A stretch of DNA of 64,000 nucleotides, taken from contig NZ_CP020918.1 of the NCBI RefSeq assembly GCF_003076455.1, forward strand, positions 3,136,001 through 3,200,000. The letters are read 5' to 3'. The stretch is from Flavobacterium faecale. Its GTDB lineage: Bacteria; Bacteroidota; Bacteroidia; Flavobacteriales; Flavobacteriaceae. The translations under genes were made by a program, and so were the position numbers. The stretch's first letter is position 1. Each line of letters starts with the position of its first letter. Of this stretch, positions 22,578 through 32,383 are shown in pieces. Below the pieces are notes generated by a model. It did not search any database. It was not told where the DNA came from and saw only the letters and a program-made list of their open reading frames with translations.

Positions 22578-23702
22578 ATGAAAGTGAATAATACCACAAT
22601 TGATTTTCAAAACAAAAAAGTACCGAATACAAACAGTCTAATCATCGAATTAAAAACAGATGATATTGACGGTAGACCAATTTACATTGCAGGTAATTTT
22701 AATAATTGGAGTACCCAAGATGAAAATTATAAATTAGAGCAGATTTCTGAAAATACGTATCAGTTTAAATTTAATATTGATCATACTTTTCCGGACTTAC
22801 TTTTGTACAAATTTACAAAAGGGGATTGGAGTGCAGTTGAGATTGGAGAGAACGAAGAGATTACAGAAAATCGTTCGACTTCATTGAAATCGGGTATTCA
22901 AAAAGAGTATGTTCCAAAATGGAGACGTAATTGGCTTCCTTACAAACCGAATTTTCTACCCCAAGTTGTCTTGTTGTCTGATGAATTTGAGATTCCGCAA
23001 CTTAATACTACTCGAAAAGTTTGGGCTTTGCTACCTCACGATTATGATCATACAACCGAGCATTATCCTGTTTTGTATTTGCAAGATGCTCAAAATCTAT
23101 TTCATGGTAATGCGGCCTACGGTAATTGGGAAATCGACAAAAAATTGGCTGTTATGGCAGAGTACAAAATTGGAAAAATCATTGTCGTAGCTGTGGAGCA
23201 TGCTGATGGTGATAGATTAACAGAGTACAGTGTCGGAAAAACAGTTTTGGGTAAAGGGCAAGGAAAAAAATACATTCGATTTTTGACCGAAACGTTAAAA
23301 CCTTATGTAGATCAAAATTTTAGAACGAAAAAAGATCGTAAGCACACCGGAATAGGTGGTAGTGCGATGGGAGCCTTGATTAGCATTTTTAGTGGTTTAC
23401 GCAATCCAGAAGTTTTTGGGCGATTGATGATTTTTTCTCCTTCACTGTGGGTAGCGCCTCAACTCAAAATTGATGTTGAAGTTGAAAATACAGATGATAC
23501 AAAAATTTACCTTTATGCAGGTGCAGAAGAGCGTGAGAATATGGTCGATCATGTTCAAAAATTTAGAGAACGTTTGTTGCAAAGCGAATTTGTAAAAAGT
23601 AAAATGGAAATCAATTTGAGCATTAATAAAAATGGCGAGCACAATGAAAGTTATTGGAGTGACGAATTTCCAAAAGCTATTGAGTGGTTGTTTTTTAGAT
23701 AA
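22578..23702 (+). CDS. Esterase-family protein with N-terminal glycogen-binding-like domain
   Basis: This 374-residue protein has two parts. Residues 15-100 look like an early-set/CBM48-type beta domain (RPIYIAGNFNNWSTQD). Residues 130-374 form an alpha/beta-hydrolase of the putative esterase (EstD/Fes-like) family, with YPVLYLQDAQNLF, GNWEID, nucleophile elbow GIGGSAMGA and a C-terminal His region (KNGEHNESYW). No signal peptide is evident. The substrate is unknown; relatives include acyl-esterases for carbohydrate or siderophore substrates. Confidence 0.8.
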   Translation: MKVNNTTIDFQNKKVPNTNSLIIELKTDDIDGRPIYIAGNFNNWSTQDENYKLEQISENTYQFKFNIDHTFPDLLLYKFTKGDWSAVEIGENEEITENRSTSLKSGIQKEYVPKWRRNWLPYKPNFLPQVVLLSDEFEIPQLNTTRKVWALLPHDYDHTTEHYPVLYLQDAQNLFHGNAAYGNWEIDKKLAVMAEYKIGKIIVVAVEHADGDRLTEYSVGKTVLGKGQGKKYIRFLTETLKPYVDQNFRTKKDRKHTGIGGSAMGALISIFSGLRNPEVFGRLMIFSPSLWVAPQLKIDVEVENTDDTKIYLYAGAEERENMVDHVQKFRERLLQSEFVKSKMEINLSINKNGEHNESYWSDEFPKAIEWLFFR

Positions 23703-23808
23703 CAATTCGTTAGTCCGGTTATGGCTATATAGTGTTAGGAAGTTTCTTTGCAATAATGTATAGCTGCTTTAAAATCAATGAAAACTATTTTTTTTGAATA
23801 AAAATATA

Positions 23809-25467
23809 ATGTCTTTTATGAGAAACACAGTTGCTTTATTTTACCTATTATTCTTGAGTATTCAAACAGTTTCATCCCAGGAGCATACTGCTTTGGTTGC
23901 GACCACTTTTACACATCAAGATAGTTTACGTGGTGGAATATCTAAAGAAAGAAGTTGGTGGGACGTAAAGAAATATGAACTTCAAATCAAAGTTAATCCT
24001 AAAGACAGTTCCATTGTTGGTTCTAATAAAGTCATTTACTCCGTTATTAATGAGTATAATACGATGCAGATTGATTTGCAAGAACCTCTCCAAATTACAA
24101 AAATAACTCAAGAAGGTTTACCATTGAAATACAAAAGAGATGGAAGCGCATACTTTATAACCTTAGATAAAAAGCAACTAGTGGGAGCGTTAAATGAACT
24201 TACTATTTATTACGAGGGTAAACCAAAATCAGCAATAAATGCACCTTGGGATGGTGGTATTGTTTGGAAAAAAGATGCAAACGGTCATCCATTTATAGCC
24301 TCATCTTGTCAAGGAATTGGTGCCAGTGTTTGGTGGCCAAATAAGGATCATATGTATGATGAAGTTGAAAGCATGGACATTAGTGTCAACGTACCATCCA
24401 ATTTGATAGCAGTTGCCAATGGTAGATTAAAAAGTAAGCAAGAACAAAATGATGGTACAACTACATTTAAATGGTCGGTTGTTAACCCAATTAATAATTA
24501 TGGGGTGAATTTTAATATAGGTGATTTTGTTTCTTTTTCAGAAATTTATAAGGGAGAGAAAGGAAATCTAGACTGTACCTATTACGTTCTTAGATCGAAT
24601 TTAGAAAAAGCAAAAAACCAATTTAAGGATGTTACTCGCATGCTTAAAGCTTTAGAATATTGGTTTGGAGCATATCCATTTTATGAAGATGGGTACAAAT
24701 TGGTCGAAACACCATTCTTGGGTATGGAGCATCAAAGTGATATCAGTTATGGTAATGGTTTTAAAAATGGCTATCGTGGATCTGATTTAAGCGGTACCGG
24801 TTGGGGATTGAAATTTGATTTTATAATCATTCATGAATCGGGTCACGAGTGGTTTGGAAATAATATCACAAACAAAGATCGCGCTGATATGTGGATACAC
24901 GAGAGTTTTACTAGCTATTCTGAAACTCTTTTTCTCGAATATTATTATGGAAAATTAGCTGCAGATGAGTATGTACGTGGTACGAGACGTAATATTTCTA
25001 ATGACAAGCCCATAATTGGATCTTATAATGTCAATGATCAGGGTTCTGGTGATATGTATTTTAAGGGTGCAAATATGTTGCATACGCTGCGCCAAATAAT
25101 GGACAATGACAAAAAGTGGCGTAAAATGCTTAGAGGATTAAATAGTACCTTTTACCATCAAATTGTTGCATCTCAGCAAATAGAAGATTATTTATCGAAA
25201 GCAGCAAAACGAGATTTAACTCCCTTCTTCGATCAATATTTGCGAGATATTCGTGTTCCAACTTTAGAATATAAAATAATTCAAAATAAATTCCAATATC
25301 GTTGGTCAAATAGTGTGGACGGCTTTGATATGCCAATCAAAATTAATGTAGATGGAAAATTGAAATGTATTCACCCTACATTGGAGTGGAAAGCACTAAC
25401 AATAAGTCGCGGAATTGACAGTATTAAAGTGGATCCTAATTATTATATAAATGTAAAAGCAAATTAG
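23809..25467 (+). CDS. Secreted M1-family metallopeptidase
   Basis: This 552-residue exported aminopeptidase-like protein has a signal peptide (LFYLLFLSIQTVSSQ). The zinc site HESGHEWFG, with the downstream Glu in DMWIHESFTSY, is HEXXH-X18-E. The exopeptidase motif is GMEHQS in place of the usual GAMEN, as in many Bacteroidota relatives. ATG 23809 or 23818 is preferred over the upstream TTG at 23794. It acts in the periplasm or outside the cell on peptide N-termini. Confidence 0.92.
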   Translation: MSFMRNTVALFYLLFLSIQTVSSQEHTALVATTFTHQDSLRGGISKERSWWDVKKYELQIKVNPKDSSIVGSNKVIYSVINEYNTMQIDLQEPLQITKITQEGLPLKYKRDGSAYFITLDKKQLVGALNELTIYYEGKPKSAINAPWDGGIVWKKDANGHPFIASSCQGIGASVWWPNKDHMYDEVESMDISVNVPSNLIAVANGRLKSKQEQNDGTTTFKWSVVNPINNYGVNFNIGDFVSFSEIYKGEKGNLDCTYYVLRSNLEKAKNQFKDVTRMLKALEYWFGAYPFYEDGYKLVETPFLGMEHQSDISYGNGFKNGYRGSDLSGTGWGLKFDFIIIHESGHEWFGNNITNKDRADMWIHESFTSYSETLFLEYYYGKLAADEYVRGTRRNISNDKPIIGSYNVNDQGSGDMYFKGANMLHTLRQIMDNDKKWRKMLRGLNSTFYHQIVASQQIEDYLSKAAKRDLTPFFDQYLRDIRVPTLEYKIIQNKFQYRWSNSVDGFDMPIKINVDGKLKCIHPTLEWKALTISRGIDSIKVDPNYYINVKAN

Positions 25468-25522
25468 AAATAAATTTTACTAATTTTACCACTGCATTGC
25501 AATCTTAACTTGATCAATCATT

Positions 25523-26215
25523 ATGAAAACTTCTGCTACCATTTTATTTCTTTCTCTTTTTAATTTCTTAGCAGTTTTTGCGCAAAATAATGTGAAAGAC
25601 AAAGAGGTAGTAAAAACGGTTGTTGTAGTTAAAGAAACAGAACCATTGCAAGTATTTGATTCCATTGCTTTCGTAAAATCAGCAGAAATGCTTCCAGAGG
25701 ATCAGTATTGGGCCATTATCGAAAAGTCAAAAGAAGCAAATGTTACACAGGCGTATCAAGAAATTTTCATAACAAATGAGCTTGAAAAATTAACTCCAAA
25801 AGAAATCATTGGTTTCCGATTGCGTACAGATAAATTATTATTCGATACCTATAAATCCAATTTGTGGTGTGCCGCATACATCATGAATGGTGGTACAGAT
25901 GGTGGATTTGATTATTTTAGATGTTGGATTATTGCACAAGGAAAAGATGCTTTTAACAAAGCAGTGGCAAACCCTGATAGTTTAGCCGATTTAGTGCAAG
26001 AAGGCAAAGAATCATATGAATTTGAAGGTTTTTGGTTTGTAGCAATGAACGCGTTCATGAATAAAACAGACCATGAAATATACGATTATATTGATTATGA
26101 TACCTTTGTGACTAATGATGAGCATTATCCATTAATTACTTTCAATTGGAGCGTAGATGAACCAAAGTCAATGGAGAAAATTTGCCCTACGCTATTTAAA
26201 AAACTTTGGAAATAA
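25523..26215 (+). CDS. DUF4240 domain protein with signal peptide
   Basis: This 230-residue protein has a signal peptide (LFLSLFNFLAVFAQ) and a DUF4240-like domain. The domain has DQYWAIIEKSKE at its start, then LWCAAYIMNGGTDGGFDYFRCWIIAQGKDAF and EGFWFVAMNAF. DUF4240 proteins are often cytoplasmic and of unknown role, so the export signal is a variation. No enzymatic motif is recognised. It is single and not clearly in an operon. Confidence 0.75.
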   Translation: MKTSATILFLSLFNFLAVFAQNNVKDKEVVKTVVVVKETEPLQVFDSIAFVKSAEMLPEDQYWAIIEKSKEANVTQAYQEIFITNELEKLTPKEIIGFRLRTDKLLFDTYKSNLWCAAYIMNGGTDGGFDYFRCWIIAQGKDAFNKAVANPDSLADLVQEGKESYEFEGFWFVAMNAFMNKTDHEIYDYIDYDTFVTNDEHYPLITFNWSVDEPKSMEKICPTLFKKLWK

Positions 26216-26267
26216 GGGTGGTTTAGATGGAAAGCTTATTCTGTTTTCAGTTATATTCTTTATTAAA

Positions 26268-27161
26268 TTAAATGTCACAAATAGTAACGGCTTGTCGTAA
26301 TGATTTTAGTTTATCTGGATTTTTAGCTAAAAATTCTTGTCCTACATAACCTTTGAATCCTGTTGCGGCTATTGCTTTCATAATTGCAGGATAATTTAAT
26401 TCCTGTGAATCATCAATTTCATTTCGGCCAGGTACTCCTGCAGTATGATAATGAGCAATGTATTGATGATTTTCTTTTATTGTCCGAATCACATCTCCCT
26501 CATCTATCTGCATATGGTATATGTCGTAAAGTAATTTAAAGTTTTCCGAATGCAATCTTTTTGCAAGTTCAACACCCCATGATGTTTTATCACATTGATT
26601 GTCCTTGTGATCTATTTTACTGTTAAGTAATTCCATTACAAGGATTACATTATGTTTTTCGGCTATGGGGATTAATTTTTGTAAACCTATCACGCAATTA
26701 TTCCAACCTTCCTCATCAGTTTTTCCTCTTCGCTTACCGCTAAAACATATTAATTTTGAGTATCCCGCTTGTGCTACCAGAGGAATCATTTCTGTGTAAC
26801 TTTTTATAAGTACTTCATGAAATTTTAAATCATTAAAACCGTCTAATAAATTTATTTCGGCACCATTACACATGGAAGATGTGAGTCCATGTTTTTGTAA
26901 AATTGGCCAATCTTTTGGGCCTACTAAATCAATTCCTGTAATCCCCATATTTTTTGCAGCGATACATAAAGCTTCTAATTCTATATCTTTAAAGCACCAT
27001 CTTGCAACAGAATGATTAATATTTCCATTTAATTTTATAGGTTCATCCTTTGTATAAACACCAGCGGTTGGAAGTGCGAATAAGCGATCAGAAATACCAA
27101 AAGTAATAGTACCTGCTAAAATACTTTTGAGTGCTGATCGTCGATTTGTTGGTCTTTTCAT
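26268..27161 (-). CDS. Exported TIM-barrel sugar isomerase-like protein (hydroxypyruvate isomerase family)
   Basis: This 297-residue protein has a Tat-like leader (NRRSALKSILAG) and an AP-endonuclease-2-type TIM barrel. Metal-site landmarks are VMELLNSKIDHK, LLYDIYHMQIDEG, HYHTAGVPGRNE and YVGQEFL, as in hydroxypyruvate isomerase. ATG 27161 is chosen since it begins right before the leader; an upstream ATG at 27179 adds MIKLRK. A -7 like CAAATATA (minus-strand TATATTTG) lies at 27177-27184. Probably periplasmic; substrate unknown. Confidence 0.82.
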   Translation of the reverse strand: MKRPTNRRSALKSILAGTITFGISDRLFALPTAGVYTKDEPIKLNGNINHSVARWCFKDIELEALCIAAKNMGITGIDLVGPKDWPILQKHGLTSSMCNGAEINLLDGFNDLKFHEVLIKSYTEMIPLVAQAGYSKLICFSGKRRGKTDEEGWNNCVIGLQKLIPIAEKHNVILVMELLNSKIDHKDNQCDKTSWGVELAKRLHSENFKLLYDIYHMQIDEGDVIRTIKENHQYIAHYHTAGVPGRNEIDDSQELNYPAIMKAIAATGFKGYVGQEFLAKNPDKLKSLRQAVTICDI

Positions 27162-27334
27162 TTTCCTTAGTTTAATCAAATATAAGTAATTGTTTTTTTA
27201 TATGATATTTAAGTTTTCCTTCAGCCATTAAAAATTATTAAAGTAACTTGCTTAGAAACAGTAATTAATTTTTTCTATTAGAAAAAAAAATCCTTAAAAT
27301 AATTATTTAAAGCAATTAAAAAATAGCTAGTATT

Positions 27335-27820
27335 ATGAAGAATAAATTTTTATTAGTTTTTACTTTTGTATTTTTAATGATGTGCAATCCATTTTTTGGT
27401 CAGCAAAAAAACCAACTAAAATTAGAGAAGATTTTTATAAAAAGCGCTGCTAAAGCATTATTAGCCATGGAAAAGGAGGCAATTGATGTAAAGGCAGAAG
27501 GAGTAGCAATAGTATGTTTTGTTCCTGGCGATAGCGTTCAGTCTTGGATATCAAAGATGAAAGTTGTAGGTTCTCTATCCGACGAAAAAGCAAATTTGTT
27601 AGCAATTGCAAGTGCAAAGGCATCTGAAATGGCTGAAACACTTAAAAATAGCGGTGAAAAAGGCAGAAAACTTAAAACTGGGGAATTCGGTTGGGCAGGA
27701 GGTGTTATAGTAAAAGTAAAATCAGGATTTGTTTTAGCATCTTTTTCAGGTGCAAAGACGCAACAAGATATTGCTATTTCAAAAATTGGTCTTACTATGC
27801 TCGCTCCTTTTTTTAACTAA
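27335..27820 (+). CDS. Secreted GlcG/HbpS-like small protein
   Basis: This 161-residue protein has a signal peptide (FVFLMMCNPFFGQ). Its domain is reminiscent of the GlcG/HbpS heme-binding family: residues in IKSAAKALLAMEKEA at the start, a central Ala-rich helix (LAIASAKASEMAETL) and a Gly-rich GWAGGVIVKVKSG. HbpS-like proteins bind heme or corrinoids. Assignment is by pattern only. Its stop is 1 nt from the stop of the convergent ATP-grasp gene, with no terminator between. Confidence 0.6.
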   Translation: MKNKFLLVFTFVFLMMCNPFFGQQKNQLKLEKIFIKSAAKALLAMEKEAIDVKAEGVAIVCFVPGDSVQSWISKMKVVGSLSDEKANLLAIASAKASEMAETLKNSGEKGRKLKTGEFGWAGGVIVKVKSGFVLASFSGAKTQQDIAISKIGLTMLAPFFN

Positions 27821-27821
27821 T

Positions 27822-29015
27822 TCATTCTTTTTCAAACAACCCAAGAGTACCACCCACCCAATCTTTGTCTTGATTGTATTTTACACCAATCATTTCGCCA
27901 CGGCTCAGTCGTACCAAATTACTAAGTATAATTGGGTTTTCGTCATCATCCTTCCAAGTACACAACATTCTCACTTCGACCTTTATTTTTTGGTCAGGAG
28001 CTTGTAGAATAGGGAGGTAGTGCACTTTTTTTTGTAAAATATAGTTTTCTTTGTCAACTACTGCTTCAATGTCGGCTTTTGTGACATGAAAAATAACTCC
28101 TGCTCCAGAGAACGAAAAAAGAGGCTTTAAAACATAGTTCTCTAAATCTTCAGGAATTTGTTCTAAATCACTAAGTAAAATGGTATCAATAAAGTATTTA
28201 CCTTTTAATAATGGCAGTATAAATTTACTAATCCTAAAAAACCAATTTGGATGACCTGCCCATTCAACATCCAAATCATCAGTGAAGCTAAACTGTAATT
28301 TCAAATCGGTACGGGCATCGAGTTCGTCAAATATGACGCGGTTATAAATTCGTTTTACAAGAATTTCTTGTCCGTTCTTATTTTTATAGAATAATTGTTT
28401 TCCTTTTTTGATCAGTTCCGTAACACATACAGGGGTAACGCCTAGGTCTCGTTTACAATAATCAAAGTCAATTTTTGTGGGTTGGTTATCAGGTTCTATT
28501 TCGAGTAAAATTACATTTTCAGTTGGATGATTATTGCAAATTACATCTCTCAAAATACCAAGATATTCCTCTTGAGATGCACCATTGACATAAGGTGTAA
28601 AAGATGCTAAAAAAGGATAAACTTCTTTAAATTTTTCGAATAAATTATTTTGAAAATTAAACAAAGACGGAAATCCTTGAACTTCAATTAACTTAGGAAT
28701 GGTGTGTCCGTTTTCTTCGCAAATACCAAAATCAACAGCCATAAAATTAGTATGGCTATCTTCATTGGCGACTTTTTTATTATTTTCTAATGATTTATTA
28801 GTCAGTTTATTAAATCCGTCTCTCTTAATAAAAGCTATAACATCGTTACAACCTTCTATTAATTGGTCTTTTAATGTTTTCGAAATAAAAAAAGGAGTTT
28901 CTGCAATTCTAAATTTGGGTTCACAATCAAAATCACGAGCAATAGCATCCTTAAGATTTTGATAGTTTTCTCCGGAAAATGCCGAGTTGAATTCTTCTCT
29001 ATATTTCGAAATCAT
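27822..29015 (-). CDS. ATP-grasp-like ligase (third gene of GCS2-GATase operon)
   Basis: This 397-residue protein is not a well-named family. Its C-terminal part has YVLKPLFSFSGAGVIF, like the ATP-binding lysine and glycine loop of circularly permuted ATP-grasp enzymes such as glutathionylspermidine synthase. NFMAVDFGICEENG and KLIEVQGFPSLF (acidic residues likely for Mg2+/substrate) and VEVRMLCTWKDD add support. It lies 26 nt after the amidotransferase gene in a three-gene minus-strand operon headed by a carboxylate-amine ligase. It likely joins an amine or amino acid to an acid using ATP; the product is unknown. Confidence 0.65.
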   Translation of the reverse strand: MISKYREEFNSAFSGENYQNLKDAIARDFDCEPKFRIAETPFFISKTLKDQLIEGCNDVIAFIKRDGFNKLTNKSLENNKKVANEDSHTNFMAVDFGICEENGHTIPKLIEVQGFPSLFNFQNNLFEKFKEVYPFLASFTPYVNGASQEEYLGILRDVICNNHPTENVILLEIEPDNQPTKIDFDYCKRDLGVTPVCVTELIKKGKQLFYKNKNGQEILVKRIYNRVIFDELDARTDLKLQFSFTDDLDVEWAGHPNWFFRISKFILPLLKGKYFIDTILLSDLEQIPEDLENYVLKPLFSFSGAGVIFHVTKADIEAVVDKENYILQKKVHYLPILQAPDQKIKVEVRMLCTWKDDDENPIILSNLVRLSRGEMIGVKYNQDKDWVGGTLGLFEKE

Positions 29016-29041
29016 AGTACTTTACATTTATTAAACAGACA

Positions 29042-29863
29042 TTATTTTTTTGTCTTCAGTAAGTCGTTCACGGCTACTTTTAGAAAATTTGGAATGATAG
29101 TTTCATTTGTCATGTAGATTTTATCATCATCTAACAAATCTTCCAACATATTTCTGAATTTTCGCTTACCCTTCATTTTTCTTATTTTGTCTTTCGCTTC
29201 TTTATTTCGAAGATGAGAAATAAAACTAATTGGATCTGCTTCTGGATGAAATTGGGTACCAACAAAATGGTCTGTAAATCGCACCGCCATGATGGCTCGC
29301 TCGTACTGGACTTTGTCTCTCATTTTTTCAAGCGAAAGAATTTTTGCGCCGTATTTTTTAAAAACATTCAGTTTGGGTTGCACTACTTGATAATCTCTCG
29401 AATCAATAGTGTAAAAAGGATTGTTTAATCCCTCATATAAAGGGTCATCTTGTCCGTCGACTGTTTTTTTGATTTTCATCACTCCAAATGAGGTGCCTTT
29501 TCTTTTAGTGATTTCTGCCAATCCAAAATGTTTGCAGGCCATTTGAAAAGAATGACAAATAAATAAAACATGCTTTTTTTCCTCGTTCTCTTTATTCCAA
29601 GCCATCAGCGAATCAATAAATTGGTAGTACTTTGTGTCCCAAATTCCGTCACCTTCCAATGGGTTTCCTGGTCCTCCGGTAGAAATATAAATGTCGTATT
29701 TTTCGATTTCGGGTAATTCACATTTGGAGCGCACGTCAAAGATTTCAAATTTCATAACATTCGAAAATTGCATAATGCTATCAATAATGCACCGCATTCC
29801 TTGATTAGGATGCCCGTCGTACATATCCAATATAGCCAACCTAATAGTGTTATTCTTGTTCAT
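29042..29863 (-). CDS. Class I glutamine amidotransferase-like protein
   Basis: This 273-residue stand-alone GMP-synthase-type GATase domain has the nucleophile Cys in VLFICHSFQMA and the His-Glu pair in GTQFHPEADP. ISTGGPGNPLEG precedes it as the usual glycine loop. About 45 C-terminal residues are lysine-rich and follow the domain. No synthetase domain is attached, so ammonia must be delivered to a partner or the enzyme acts as a glutamyl hydrolase. It is 37 nt downstream of the carboxylate-amine ligase gene. Confidence 0.85.
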   Translation of the reverse strand: MNKNNTIRLAILDMYDGHPNQGMRCIIDSIMQFSNVMKFEIFDVRSKCELPEIEKYDIYISTGGPGNPLEGDGIWDTKYYQFIDSLMAWNKENEEKKHVLFICHSFQMACKHFGLAEITKRKGTSFGVMKIKKTVDGQDDPLYEGLNNPFYTIDSRDYQVVQPKLNVFKKYGAKILSLEKMRDKVQYERAIMAVRFTDHFVGTQFHPEADPISFISHLRNKEAKDKIRKMKGKRKFRNMLEDLLDDDKIYMTNETIIPNFLKVAVNDLLKTKK

Positions 29864-29900
29864 TCTGTGGTATTTAGTGGAACAAATATAAGAATTTCAT

Positions 29901-31007
29901 CTATAAACCCTTGGTGAATTCTGTAGTGATAAAATCAACTACCTTCTTTAAATCTTTTGTTTCCTCAAATACCGCCAATTGTTTGGCTGCTCCAGTGCCG
30001 TTTTTCAGTATTTCATGTACATAATTAATATGATCTCTACTGCCTAATTCATCAACTACCTCGTCAATAAAATCGATTAATTCACGAATTAATACACGTG
30101 TTTCTACTTCTTTCTGCAGACCAAAATCTATCATTTCACCTTCGATGCCGTATCTCGAGGCTCTAAATTTATTCTCCTTTATTAATGCTATCCTATAAAT
30201 ATTAAAACTCATATTGTTCAAGTTCATTTTATATAGTTTTGCTACAACTGCTTGTATGATAGCTACGATACACATTGTTTCGTCTGCAGTGAGACACATG
30301 TCGCAGATTCGAAATTCAATGGTATCATATACCGGATGCAGTCGCAAATCCCACCAAATTTTCTTGGGATCATCAATGCAGTTTGTTTTAACTAAGGTCT
30401 CCAAAAAACCTTCATAAGAACTCAAGCAGTCAAAATATTCGGGTAAACCAGTTCTAGGAAATTTATCAAATACTTTGGTTCGATACGATTTGTAGCCTGT
30501 CTGCCTACCTTGCCAAAAGGGGGAATTAGTCGAAAGTGCAAAAATATGGGGCAGAAAATAACAAGCTTGATTCATTATTTTTAGCGCCATTTCCTTGTTT
30601 TGAATCCCTATATGGCAGTGTAATCCAAAAATTAAATTGGATCGCGCAGCATCTTGTAGTTCTTTGATAATATTATGGTAGCGAGGATCATCTGTGATTA
30701 ATTGATCTTGCCAATTTGCAAAGGGATGTGTACCAGCGCCACCTACAATTAATCCTTGATGATCTGCTAATTCAACGATTTTTGAACGTAAAAATTTTAT
30801 TTCTTTCTCAGCTTCATGTACTGTATTACAAATATTAGTCCCGACTTCGACCGCAGATTGGTGCATTTCGGCTTTTACTTGTTCCTTGAGTAGTATTTTA
30901 CCACCTTCTACAATTTTTGACAAATGAGATCGTAAGTCTCTAGTCTCAGGATCTATAATTTGATATTCCTCTTCGACACCTATTGTGAAAATGGGTAGTT
31001 TTTTCAT
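29901..31007 (-). CDS. Carboxylate-amine ligase (YbdK/GCS2 family)
   Basis: This 368-residue enzyme of the glutamate-cysteine ligase type 2 fold starts with FTIGVEEEYQIIDPETRDLRS, the family hallmark. It has AEMHQSAVEVGTNIC, GLIVGGAGTHPFANW, FGLHCHIGI and TIEFRICDMC with catalytic acids. Family members make gamma-glutamyl amides; E. coli YbdK has only weak gamma-glutamylcysteine activity. No glutathione synthetase (GshB) is adjacent. It heads an operon with a GATase and an ATP-grasp-like gene, which suggests a specialised gamma-glutamyl or related metabolite. Confidence 0.92.
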   Translation of the reverse strand: MKKLPIFTIGVEEEYQIIDPETRDLRSHLSKIVEGGKILLKEQVKAEMHQSAVEVGTNICNTVHEAEKEIKFLRSKIVELADHQGLIVGGAGTHPFANWQDQLITDDPRYHNIIKELQDAARSNLIFGLHCHIGIQNKEMALKIMNQACYFLPHIFALSTNSPFWQGRQTGYKSYRTKVFDKFPRTGLPEYFDCLSSYEGFLETLVKTNCIDDPKKIWWDLRLHPVYDTIEFRICDMCLTADETMCIVAIIQAVVAKLYKMNLNNMSFNIYRIALIKENKFRASRYGIEGEMIDFGLQKEVETRVLIRELIDFIDEVVDELGSRDHINYVHEILKNGTGAAKQLAVFEETKDLKKVVDFITTEFTKGL

Positions 31008-31100
31008 TTATAGAAGTTTTTGATATAAATTAAATAGTTTGGTGTTTTGGTTGGTTAATAGTAAAATGCTCTTTCATGACGAATCATAAAAGAGAAAAAT

Positions 31101-31130
31101 AAATAGGTTTTGTGTATGCAAAACCTATTT
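31101..31130 (-). terminator. Hairpin downstream of the 31170-31574 gene
   Basis: AAATAGGTTTTG and CAAAACCTATTT form a perfect 12-bp stem with a 6-nt loop. On the minus strand it is followed by a T-rich stretch (TTTATTTTTCTC). It fits a terminator for the leftward gene ending at 31170. Confidence 0.6.
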
Positions 31131-31169
31131 ATAATAAAAAATAACAGTTTTTTTATAGTTCAACTGCTC

Positions 31170-31574
31170 TTAAACGCTGGTTTTTGCTTCAAAGAGTTGA
31201 ACTTGGCTTTTGAGTCTTTCTATCAGCATATTCATCATTCGTTTGTTCAAACTTGATGAGTTTTGAATATAAAGACTATATTCTTCTGTTGTAAATAAGC
31301 CTACAACCATCCCTTTCAAAGCATTTCGATACTTAATATCTTTTTGAATAGCATTTTCGATGGTAGCAGTCTTTTTTTCAATAGATTGCGCATAGAAATC
31401 CTTTTTGTACTTGGTGATATAATTTAAAAACGAAGCTACAAAAAGATCGTTTTGTAGTTTTAAAATTGGTCGTAGTACCTGATTTTGAAAATTTTCATCA
31501 GTTGACGATTGCGAATTGATACTACCTATAGATTCTCCTCTAAATTCGGTTAAAAATTGGTCTCTTGGGCTCAT
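31170..31574 (-). CDS. Hypothetical flavobacterial protein (sometimes labelled glyoxalase)
   Basis: The protein is 134 residues from the ATG at 31574 (MSPRDQFLTEFRGES). An upstream in-frame start at 31679 would overlap the divergent thioesterase gene and gives an implausible N-terminus. It is all-helical in character, with charged heptad-like C-terminus (MMNMLIERLKSQVQLFEAK). I see no metal-binding His/Glu pattern of glyoxalase, so that label, which I recall for similar proteins, is doubtful. Function unknown. Confidence 0.7.
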   Translation of the reverse strand: MSPRDQFLTEFRGESIGSINSQSSTDENFQNQVLRPILKLQNDLFVASFLNYITKYKKDFYAQSIEKKTATIENAIQKDIKYRNALKGMVVGLFTTEEYSLYIQNSSSLNKRMMNMLIERLKSQVQLFEAKTSV

Positions 31575-31643
31575 TTTTTTTCTTTTAAAATTAACGAAAA
31601 ATACTTTAGCAAATCGTATTTTAGCAATATTAAATAATGATTT

Positions 31644-32036
31644 ATGAGATTTCACACAAGAAAATGGGTCAAGCCGCAAGACCTAAATCCAAACGGCACT
31701 TTATTTGGAGGACAACTATTAGCATGGATAGATGAAGAATTGGCTTTGTACGCTATTATTCAATTAGAAAGTCCTAGAGTAGTAACCAAAAGCATGTCTG
31801 AAATCAATTTTAGACGATCAGCAAAACAAGGAGATATTATCGAAATCGGAATTGATGTTGTGAAATTTGGCAATACATCGCTCACCTTACAATGTGAAGT
31901 GCGAAACATGATGACGCGCGAGACCATTATCACCATAGATACTACAACCATGGTTAATTTGGGCCCCGATGGAAAACCGAAAGCACATGGGAAAACTAAG
32001 ATTGAATTTGTAAAAGATAGATTGATCGAAAATTAA
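31644..32036 (+). CDS. Acyl-CoA thioesterase (YciA-like hotdog protein)
   Basis: This 130-residue single hotdog domain has the N-terminal VKPQDLNPNGTLFGGQLLAWIDEE, where N-G-T-L-F-G-G and the following Asp/Glu are the family's active-site loop and helix. RRSAKQGDIIEIG and TIDTTTMVNLG complete the pattern. It hydrolyses acyl-CoA esters in the cytoplasm, probably medium or long chain. It is divergent from the hypothetical gene at 31574. Confidence 0.9.
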   Translation: MRFHTRKWVKPQDLNPNGTLFGGQLLAWIDEELALYAIIQLESPRVVTKSMSEINFRRSAKQGDIIEIGIDVVKFGNTSLTLQCEVRNMMTRETIITIDTTTMVNLGPDGKPKAHGKTKIEFVKDRLIEN

Positions 32037-32085
32037 AAAGTTCTACTAGGTACGATACATATACCTGGTAGAACTTTAATTTTAT
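32037..32085. terminator. Convergent-gene hairpin
   Basis: AAAGTTCTACTAGGTA (32037-32052) pairs with TACCTGGTAGAACTTT (32062-32077), with one wobble, followed by a T-rich tract. It lies between the thioesterase gene (plus) and the DUF3817 gene (minus) and may serve both. Confidence 0.7.
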
Positions 32086-32098
32086 TTTTCGAAAGAAA

Positions 32099-32383
32099 TT
32101 AAGCAGTTGCTAAATATTTTTTTTCAATATAAAAAGTACCGAATGGAACTAAAGAAGCTGCAAGGATGATCCCGAAGGTCTTCCAGTCCCAACGTTGTGC
32201 ATTTTTGAGTAAAATAGCTAGAGCAATATATCCTATAAACAATACACCATGACTCATACCAATTGGATATAATAAGGTATGATATAGTTCGAAATTGTTA
32301 GGTTTTATAAAAAGCATGTTCGAAAATAAAACCAAATAGGATATTCCCTCAAGTATAGCTACAATTTTAAACAGTTTTAACAT
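32099..32383 (-). CDS. DUF3817 small membrane protein
   Basis: This 94-residue protein has three hydrophobic helices. It begins LFKIVAILEGISYLVLF and contains YPIGMSHGVLFIGYI and a C-terminal AASLVPFGTFYIEKKY, matching the DUF3817 pattern (Glu in helix 1, His in helix 2). Function unknown. A minus-strand -7 element (CAAAAATA on plus) is at 32407-32414. Confidence 0.88.
   Translation of the reverse strand: MLKLFKIVAILEGISYLVLFSNMLFIKPNNFELYHTLLYPIGMSHGVLFIGYIALAILLKNAQRWDWKTFGIILAASLVPFGTFYIEKKYLATA

What the first reader, a model, noticed from the sequence alone, without database searches (positions are those of the whole stretch)
27822..31007. Carboxylate-amine ligase, glutamine amidotransferase and ATP-grasp-like operon: candidate new pathway
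Three enzymes for ATP-driven amide formation and ammonia handling are encoded together with 26-37-nt gaps: a YbdK/GCS2 ligase, a solitary class I GATase and a protein with ATP-grasp-like motifs. No glutathione synthetase, asparagine synthase or known acceptor gene is nearby. Together they could make and process a gamma-glutamyl or iso-peptide metabolite, or modify a protein tail. I recall similar neighbourhoods in other Bacteroidota but no established product.
Basis: partly seen in the sequence, partly recalled or inferred. Interest (0 to 1): 0.74.

Follow-up and report, generated by a model that had tools for sequence, protein, structure and literature searches.

The report
Trimmed gamma-glutamyl peptide-making gene cluster
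Three neighbouring bacterial genes look like a small assembly line that joins glutamate to other building blocks and trims the result, the surviving part of a larger, widely shared cluster whose product I could not find described.

Summary

Elsewhere a further ligase (AG2, RimK-like) sits directly upstream: all 29 other loci shown among relatives have it, the window does not. In 118 genomes of the phylum GCS2, AG2 and the glutathione-synthetase-like protein occur together in 32; in nine of these no two are neighbours. GATase is missing from 13 of the 32, against an obligatory ammonia supplier.

Best explanation (0.55): gamma-glutamyl oligopeptide synthesis, GATase trimming gamma-glutamate. Substrates and product are unknown. 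New variant of a known kind, multi-ligase peptide clusters.

The parts
29901..31007 (-). GCS2 / YbdK-type carboxylate-amine ligase (PRK13515), 368 aa
   Evidence: PF04107 202 bits (cut-off 21), NF010039 511 bits (cut-off 371). GhExE signature G10-V-E12-E-E14: 98 of 99 homologues from fetched loci have G, E and E there, one has a gap. Only GCS2 match in the genome.
29042..29863 (-). Solitary class I GATase-fold protein, likely gamma-glutamyl peptidase or transferase, 273 aa
   Evidence: PF00117 42.1 bits (cut-off 22.8). C103, H206, E208 in 95 of 95 homologues from fetched loci. Model pLDDT 89.3, best Foldseek hit Arabidopsis gamma-glutamyl peptidase 1, E 1.7e-12.
27822..29015 (-). ATP-grasp ligase of the glutathione synthetase / GspS / YgiC fold (called ATPG here), 397 aa
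31008..31169 (.). Site where EST2 and AG2 lie in other Flavobacterium loci but are absent here; no remnant found
   Evidence: Synteny with L003, L010, L014. tblastn of this stretch with the cluster proteins gives nothing below E 0.2.
31099..31132 (-). Terminator-like hairpin (14 pairs, then T-rich tail) between the upstream gene and GCS2
   Evidence: consensus match only, 4 terminator-like sites found in the region against 2.7 (sd 1.8) in shuffles
22578..23702 (+). EST1, PF00756 esterase, cluster partner in other genomes and retained here about 4 kb from ATPG
   Evidence: PF00756 98.4 bits. Next to LAP and AG1 in L003, L004, L010, L014, L015.
23703..23793 (.). Site where AG1 (L-amino acid ligase-like) and LAP (M17 aminopeptidase) lie in other Flavobacterium loci but are absent here
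   Evidence: Synteny with L003, L010, L014. No match in the window; none in own genome (no positive control).

Best explanation
A gamma-glutamyl oligopeptide biosynthesis module. Step 1: GCS2 phosphorylates the gamma-carboxylate of glutamate and joins it to an amino acid or amine (family and signature residues shown; reaction and substrate inferred from the family). Step 2: ATPG, of the glutathione synthetase/GspS fold, activates the free carboxylate of that product and adds a second amine (fold and conserved residues shown; substrate inferred). Step 3: the GATase-fold enzyme cuts or moves the gamma-glutamyl group through a cysteine acyl-enzyme, as plant gamma-glutamyl peptidase 1 does (fold and triad shown; reaction inferred). 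In most relatives AG2 (RimK-like), and in many AG1 (L-amino acid ligase-like), a peptidase (M17 or M29) and esterases, would add or trim further units. This genome lacks AG2, and AG1, LAP and EST2 are gone from the locus, so it probably makes a shorter product.
For: Fold. Conserved residues in 113 of 113 ATPG, 95 of 95 GATase and 98 of 99 GCS2 homologues from fetched loci. Linkage in 73 of 80 loci. In 118 genomes GCS2 is in 33 of 36 with ATPG and 4 of 82 without, AG2 in 34 of 36 and 9 of 82 (counts). In nine genomes no two of the three ligase genes are neighbours, yet all three are present, so operon linkage alone does not explain it; in five of the nine AG2 and GCS2 are still on one contig 9-25 kb apart. 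AG1's nearest solved relative is an L-amino acid ligase, 4wd3 E 6.8e-22. A peptidase often accompanies the ligases: M17 in 62 of 80 loci, M29 in L117 and L134. The same ATP-grasp fold makes homoglutathione, peptide-spermidine conjugates and the first amide of E-64 (PMC12568646, passages).
Confidence: 0.55

Rival explanations
1. Polyamine or protein conjugation: ATPG is a peptide-spermidine-type ligase (like YgiC/YjfC/GspS) joining a gamma-glutamyl peptide to a polyamine or a protein tail.
Against: Z differences below 1 are ties, and human GSS stands at 24.9. ATPG falls below the GSP_synth cut-off (17.1 vs 29.3 bits). I noticed no polyamine gene or acceptor protein by eye in the neighbour listings, but ORFs below 70-80 aa were not listed and no systematic search was made.
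Confidence: 0.15
2. Glutamine-dependent amidation: the GATase supplies ammonia to ATPG or GCS2, which makes a terminal amide (as in a glutathione-amide-like compound).
For: Class I GATase fold with an intact triad; adjacency with an ATP-grasp enzyme, as in carbamoyl phosphate synthetase (recalled).
Against: No GATase match in 13 of 32 genomes with ATPG, GCS2 and AG2. Nucleophile elbow is L/F-x-C-H-S-F-Q, not GxCxG (canonical form recalled). Seven genomes have a strong GATase match without ATPG.
Confidence: 0.1
3. Ordinary glutathione synthesis: GCS2 makes gamma-glutamylcysteine and ATPG adds glycine.
For: GCS2 plus a protein of glutathione synthetase fold in one operon. No GshB seen: the one PF02955 hit lies in a Zn_protease-RimK fusion protein.
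Against: The genome encodes BshC, so bacillithiol is the likely thiol (PMC6282198 predicts it for Bacteroidetes, passages); BshA and BshB were not searched. The core normally includes AG2, which glutathione does not need. ATPG lacks the conserved arginine.
Confidence: 0.08
4. Relic: after the loss of AG2, AG1 and LAP the three genes here no longer make anything useful and are on their way out.
For: AG2 is missing only here among the 30 loci shown for relatives. L002 and L005 also lack EST2 and AG2 at the locus, and L005 lacks AG1 and LAP too.
Against: All three frames are intact with their conserved residues. ATPG dN/dS against L002 is 0.11-0.14, in two lineages that both lack AG2 at the locus; it covers only the time since a likely recombination, and no usable value was obtained for the other genes.
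Confidence: 0.12

Closest known systems
Glutathione biosynthesis by gamma-glutamylcysteine ligase (GCS2 type) and eukaryotic-type glutathione synthetase
   Same: A glutamate gamma-carboxylate ligase family member paired with an ATP-grasp of the same fold; E-x-[NQ] motif and the K-P of the ATP-grasp region present.
   Different: ATPG has ELQGFPS-like sequence in place of the usual E-x-N motif and no R-x-D arginine; a further ligase (AG2) belongs to the core; the genome has a bacillithiol gene.
YgiC/YjfC and glutathionylspermidine synthetase (PF03738)
   Different: About 12-14% identity; below the Pfam cut-off; no LEFNADTP motif.
Cp1B, stand-alone ATP-grasp amide ligase of E-64 biosynthesis (9cjn)
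   Different: Fungal; acts with an ANL-family enzyme rather than a GCS2; keeps R139/D141/E163/N165 (PMC12568646, passages).
Arabidopsis gamma-glutamyl peptidase 1
   Same: Best Foldseek hit of the GATase protein; removes gamma-Glu from glutathione conjugates (PMC6243137, passages).
   Different: 14-18% identity; in Z (22.1) it lies 1.2 below TM1158 (23.3) and ties with homoserine transacylases and DnfC.
Multi-ligase peptide operons (Iyer et al. 2009, cited in PMC4431377; the 2009 paper itself could not be read)
   Same: Linked ATP-grasp and COOH-NH2 ligases, inferred to do successive peptide ligations (PMC4431377, passages).
   Different: I cannot say whether this exact cluster is described there.

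Membership tests
GCS2 / YbdK carboxylate-amine ligases | PF04107 and PRK13515 above curated cut-offs | tested here: met
   202.3 vs 21 bits; 511.5 vs 371 bits
GCS2 / YbdK carboxylate-amine ligases | GhExE Mg/ATP signature (PMC2588565, passages) | tested here: met
   G10-V-E12-E-E14 in the window; 98 of 99 homologues, one gap
GCS2 / YbdK carboxylate-amine ligases | gamma-glutamyl ligase activity | not testable with these tools
   needs enzyme assay
Class I glutamine amidotransferases | PF00117 above cut-off and Cys-His-Glu triad | tested here: met
   42.1 vs 22.8 bits; C103, H206, E208 in 95 of 95
Class I glutamine amidotransferases | canonical GxCxG nucleophile elbow (recalled) | tested here: not met
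   position 101 is L (72) or F (23) and 105 is S in 95 of 95 homologues
Class I glutamine amidotransferases | ammonia supplied to a partner synthase | tested here: inconclusive
   no match in 13 of 32 core genomes, so not obligatory
Gamma-glutamyl peptidase 1-like | fold | tested here: met
Gamma-glutamyl peptidase 1-like | hydrolysis of gamma-glutamyl peptides | not testable with these tools
   needs enzyme assay
Homoserine O-succinyltransferase (PF04204) | Pfam cut-off | tested here: not met
Glutathione synthetase / GspS ATP-grasp fold | full-length structural match | tested here: met
Glutathione synthetase / GspS ATP-grasp fold | R-x-D ... E-x-N active-site residues (Cp1B R139, D141, E163, N165; PMC12568646, passages) | tested here: inconclusive
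   D95 and E111 invariant, Q113 for N, Arg never seen at 93 in 113 homologues; mapping shifts by two in hhalign
Glutathionylspermidine synthase family PF03738 | Pfam gathering score | tested here: not met
   17.1 vs 29.3 bits

The most novel reading that the evidence does not exclude
GCS2, AG2 and a divergent glutathione-synthetase-fold ligase family (signature ELQGFPS, no R-x-D arginine) are a co-inherited three-ligase core, found in 32 of 118 sampled genomes of the phylum, linked or apart. It makes an unknown gamma-glutamyl peptide used widely by the Bacteroidota alongside bacillithiol, and the window is a natural variant that makes a truncated form.
Probability: 0.4. Interest if true: 0.75.

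Novelty: new variant of a known kind. Interest (0 to 1): 0.52.

Why it matters
If right, a sizeable part of the Bacteroidota makes a gamma-glutamyl metabolite for which I found no name, from an enzyme set that can be expressed and assayed directly. It would also define a family of glutathione-synthetase-fold ligases that no Pfam model reaches above its cut-off, and the window offers a natural experiment in which one ligase of the set is missing.

Tried and rejected
Tried without result. Own-genome searches for AG2, AG1 and LAP were empty. AG2 absence is backed, where an AG2 profile found 43 of 118 genomes but not this one; AG1 and LAP have no such control, and EST2 was sought only in the window. 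PHROGs and PADLOC gave nothing for the three proteins, so a phage or defence role has no support. hhalign of ATPG with the circularly permuted ATP-grasp that replaces it in some genomes was insignificant (probability 1.2%, E 0.042). dN/dS by YN00 failed for all pairs but ATPG window-L002, and NG86 failed for GCS2 and GAT. Trees of the three proteins do not resolve whether L002, L005 and the window share one loss: L004, which has AG2, falls between them with support 0.57. The PF02955 hit was rejected as GshB: the same protein carries PF05618 Zn_protease and RimK at 214 bits. GshA type 1 and GshF were not searched.

The YgiC-like alignment A6 used 4 of the 7 proteins found: a script kept those with a recalled motif, so its motif is selected for. 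A1 used 19 of the 80 loci and A2, A3, A4, A5 12, 9, 7 and 4 sequences. The homologues come from fetched loci and were not made non-redundant by species. Of the seven genomes with AG2 and GATase but no ATPG, four genes between the two were aligned (L147, L148, L149, L151) and two scanned: L147 passes PF14403 (37.5 vs 32), L148 is below it (23.7). The rest were not examined closely; the listing was cut.

Literature: of ten searches, searches were aimed at the cluster or its enzymes (17, 62 and 80 returned no paper at all), at thiols and at gamma-glutamyl peptidase. No listing (title and start of abstract) pointed to this cluster. The library is open-access only. Iyer et al. 2009 (doi 10.1039/b917682a) is not held, was not read, and may contain it. 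PMC2588565, PMC4431377, PMC8939145, PMC3765264, PMC12568646, PMC6243137 and PMC6282198 were seen as passages only; the second last two of these named first in the list of unused ones, PMC8939145 and PMC3765264, gave nothing that bears on the case.

Full report
What is there. On the minus strand three genes follow one another: GCS2 (31007-29901, 368 aa), a solitary class I GATase-fold protein (29863-29042, 273 aa) and an ATP-grasp protein (29015-27822, 397 aa), with gaps of 37 and 26 nt. A terminator-like hairpin lies upstream at 31132-31099 (consensus match only), and a convergent gene on the other strand ends at 27820. The window lies in a single-contig genome of 4.62 Mb rated 100% complete; the nearest named relative of the third protein is in Flavobacterium sp. 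7A at 92%. The genome has one GCS2 match.

Linkage and the larger cluster. One search found 160 relatives of ATPG in a one-genome-per-species collection and kept the best 80. Of these 80 loci 77 have GCS2, 76 a GATase gene, and 73 the order GCS2-GATase-ATPG on one strand; the others are L011, L012, L013, L018, L025, L050 and L052, of which L011 and L013 come from contigs that start inside the cluster. AG2 is in 74 of 80, in 73 with GCS2: of the six without, L011, L013, L015 and L063 begin too late to show it, and L002 and L005 lack it. AG2 (about 315 aa) passes no Pfam cut-off and has a weak RimK-family match (27.3 vs 143.4 bits). EST2 (alpha/beta hydrolase) is in 70, AG1 in 71, an M17 aminopeptidase in 62 and EST1 (PF00756) in 6 of the 80 loci, which reach only 6 kb to each side; AG1's nearest solved relative is an L-amino acid ligase, 4wd3, E 6.8e-22. 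In two loci an M29 peptidase sits between GCS2 and ATPG (L117, L134). In L003, L010 and L014 the order is EST2-AG2-GCS2-GATase-ATPG, then, on the other strand, the DUF4240 and M1 peptidase counterparts, AG1, LAP and EST1 (and 83 for L003). The window keeps EST1, the M1 peptidase, DUF4240 and the three genes, but AG1-LAP and EST2-AG2 are missing at those two places, with no remnants. L005 lacks the same four genes at the same places. AG2 is absent from the whole genome at the search's sensitivity. Among 198 relatives searched with GCS2, 48 matched (one weakly) and 30 loci were given, the best-scoring ones and the window's own among them; all 29 others have AG2 next to GCS2. The 18 matches without a locus were not looked at in this way.

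Co-occurrence. In 118 genomes of the window's phylum (unnamed; Bacteroidota by inference), at least 90% complete and drawn evenly, ATPG is in 36 (one, G047, a 25-residue fragment; another, G066, split over contigs), GCS2 in 37, AG2 in 43 and GATase in 31 (two weak and partial). GCS2 occurs in 33 of 36 with ATPG and 4 of 82 without (Fisher 2.1e-21); AG2 in 34 of 36 and 9 of 82 (5.9e-19); GATase in 22 of 36 and 9 of 82 (4.4e-8). All three ligases are together in 32 genomes of 15 families; 13 of these 32 have no GATase match. ATPG and GCS2 are neighbours on one strand in 22 of 33. In nine genomes (G079, G086, G105, G027, G023, G101, G113, G059, G043) no two of the three ligase genes are neighbours, yet all three are present; in five of them (G086, G105, G027, G101, G059) AG2 and GCS2 are on one contig 9-25 kb apart. 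Related genomes are not independent, so these values are descriptive. ATPG without GCS2 occurs in G037 and G064 (and the fragment G047); the first two have AG2 and GATase. Of five same-genus genomes in this sample other than the window's, none has ATPG, so the cluster is patchy.

How it most likely works. GCS2 makes a gamma-glutamyl amide; ATPG, of the fold that adds glycine, beta-alanine or polyamines to gamma-glutamyl peptides, extends it; AG2 and AG1 where present add more; the GATase protein removes or transfers the gamma-glutamyl group, as gamma-glutamyl peptidase 1 does to glutathione conjugates (PMC6243137, passages). Families, folds, conserved residues and co-inheritance are shown; reactions, substrates, order and product are inferred. 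Selection has kept ATPG intact: dN/dS 0.11-0.14 against L002, which also lacks AG2 at the locus, although this measures only the time since a likely recombination. The genome has BshC, and its one GSH-S_ATP hit is in a Zn_protease-RimK fusion, so this is probably not the cell's general thiol route.

Novelty. Linked peptide ligases are a known kind (PMC4431377 citing Iyer et al. 2009, passages; the 2009 paper was not readable). The literature searches listed under Tried and rejected found no description of this cluster, but the library is open-access only. I file it as a new variant of a known kind.

Noticed in passing
window 23700-32200 against L002: Identity to Flavobacterium sp. 7A is 66-83% per 250 bases down to about 28950, then 88-100% through ATPG, DUF4240 and the M1 peptidase: a likely homologous recombination tract whose edge lies near the start of the ATPG gene.
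   Followed up: partly
window 26268-27820: A xylose-isomerase-like TIM-barrel gene (26268-27179) and a 161-aa gene (27335-27820) are present here but not in L002, where ATPG is directly followed by the DUF4240 counterpart.
   Followed up: partly
L147, L148, L149, L151: AG2 and the GATase gene flank a different gene, apparently a circularly permuted ATP-grasp (L147 above the PF14403 cut-off, L148 below, the other two not scanned), in place of GCS2 and ATPG.
   Followed up: partly
L137, L139, L140, L142, L143, L144, L145: Distant ATPG homologues (32-38%) lie directly beside an amidohydrolase-like gene in all seven by eye; two of the seven were scanned and pass PF07969.
   Followed up: partly
L168:601-1974 (own genome, near C1:4140229): One protein joins a PF05618 Zn_protease domain (126 bits) to a RimK ATP-grasp (214 bits).
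   Followed up: partly
L119, L124: AG2-GATase-ATPG clusters (with EST2 in L119) in genomes without any GCS2 match (G064, G037), so another enzyme may do the first step there.
   Followed up: no
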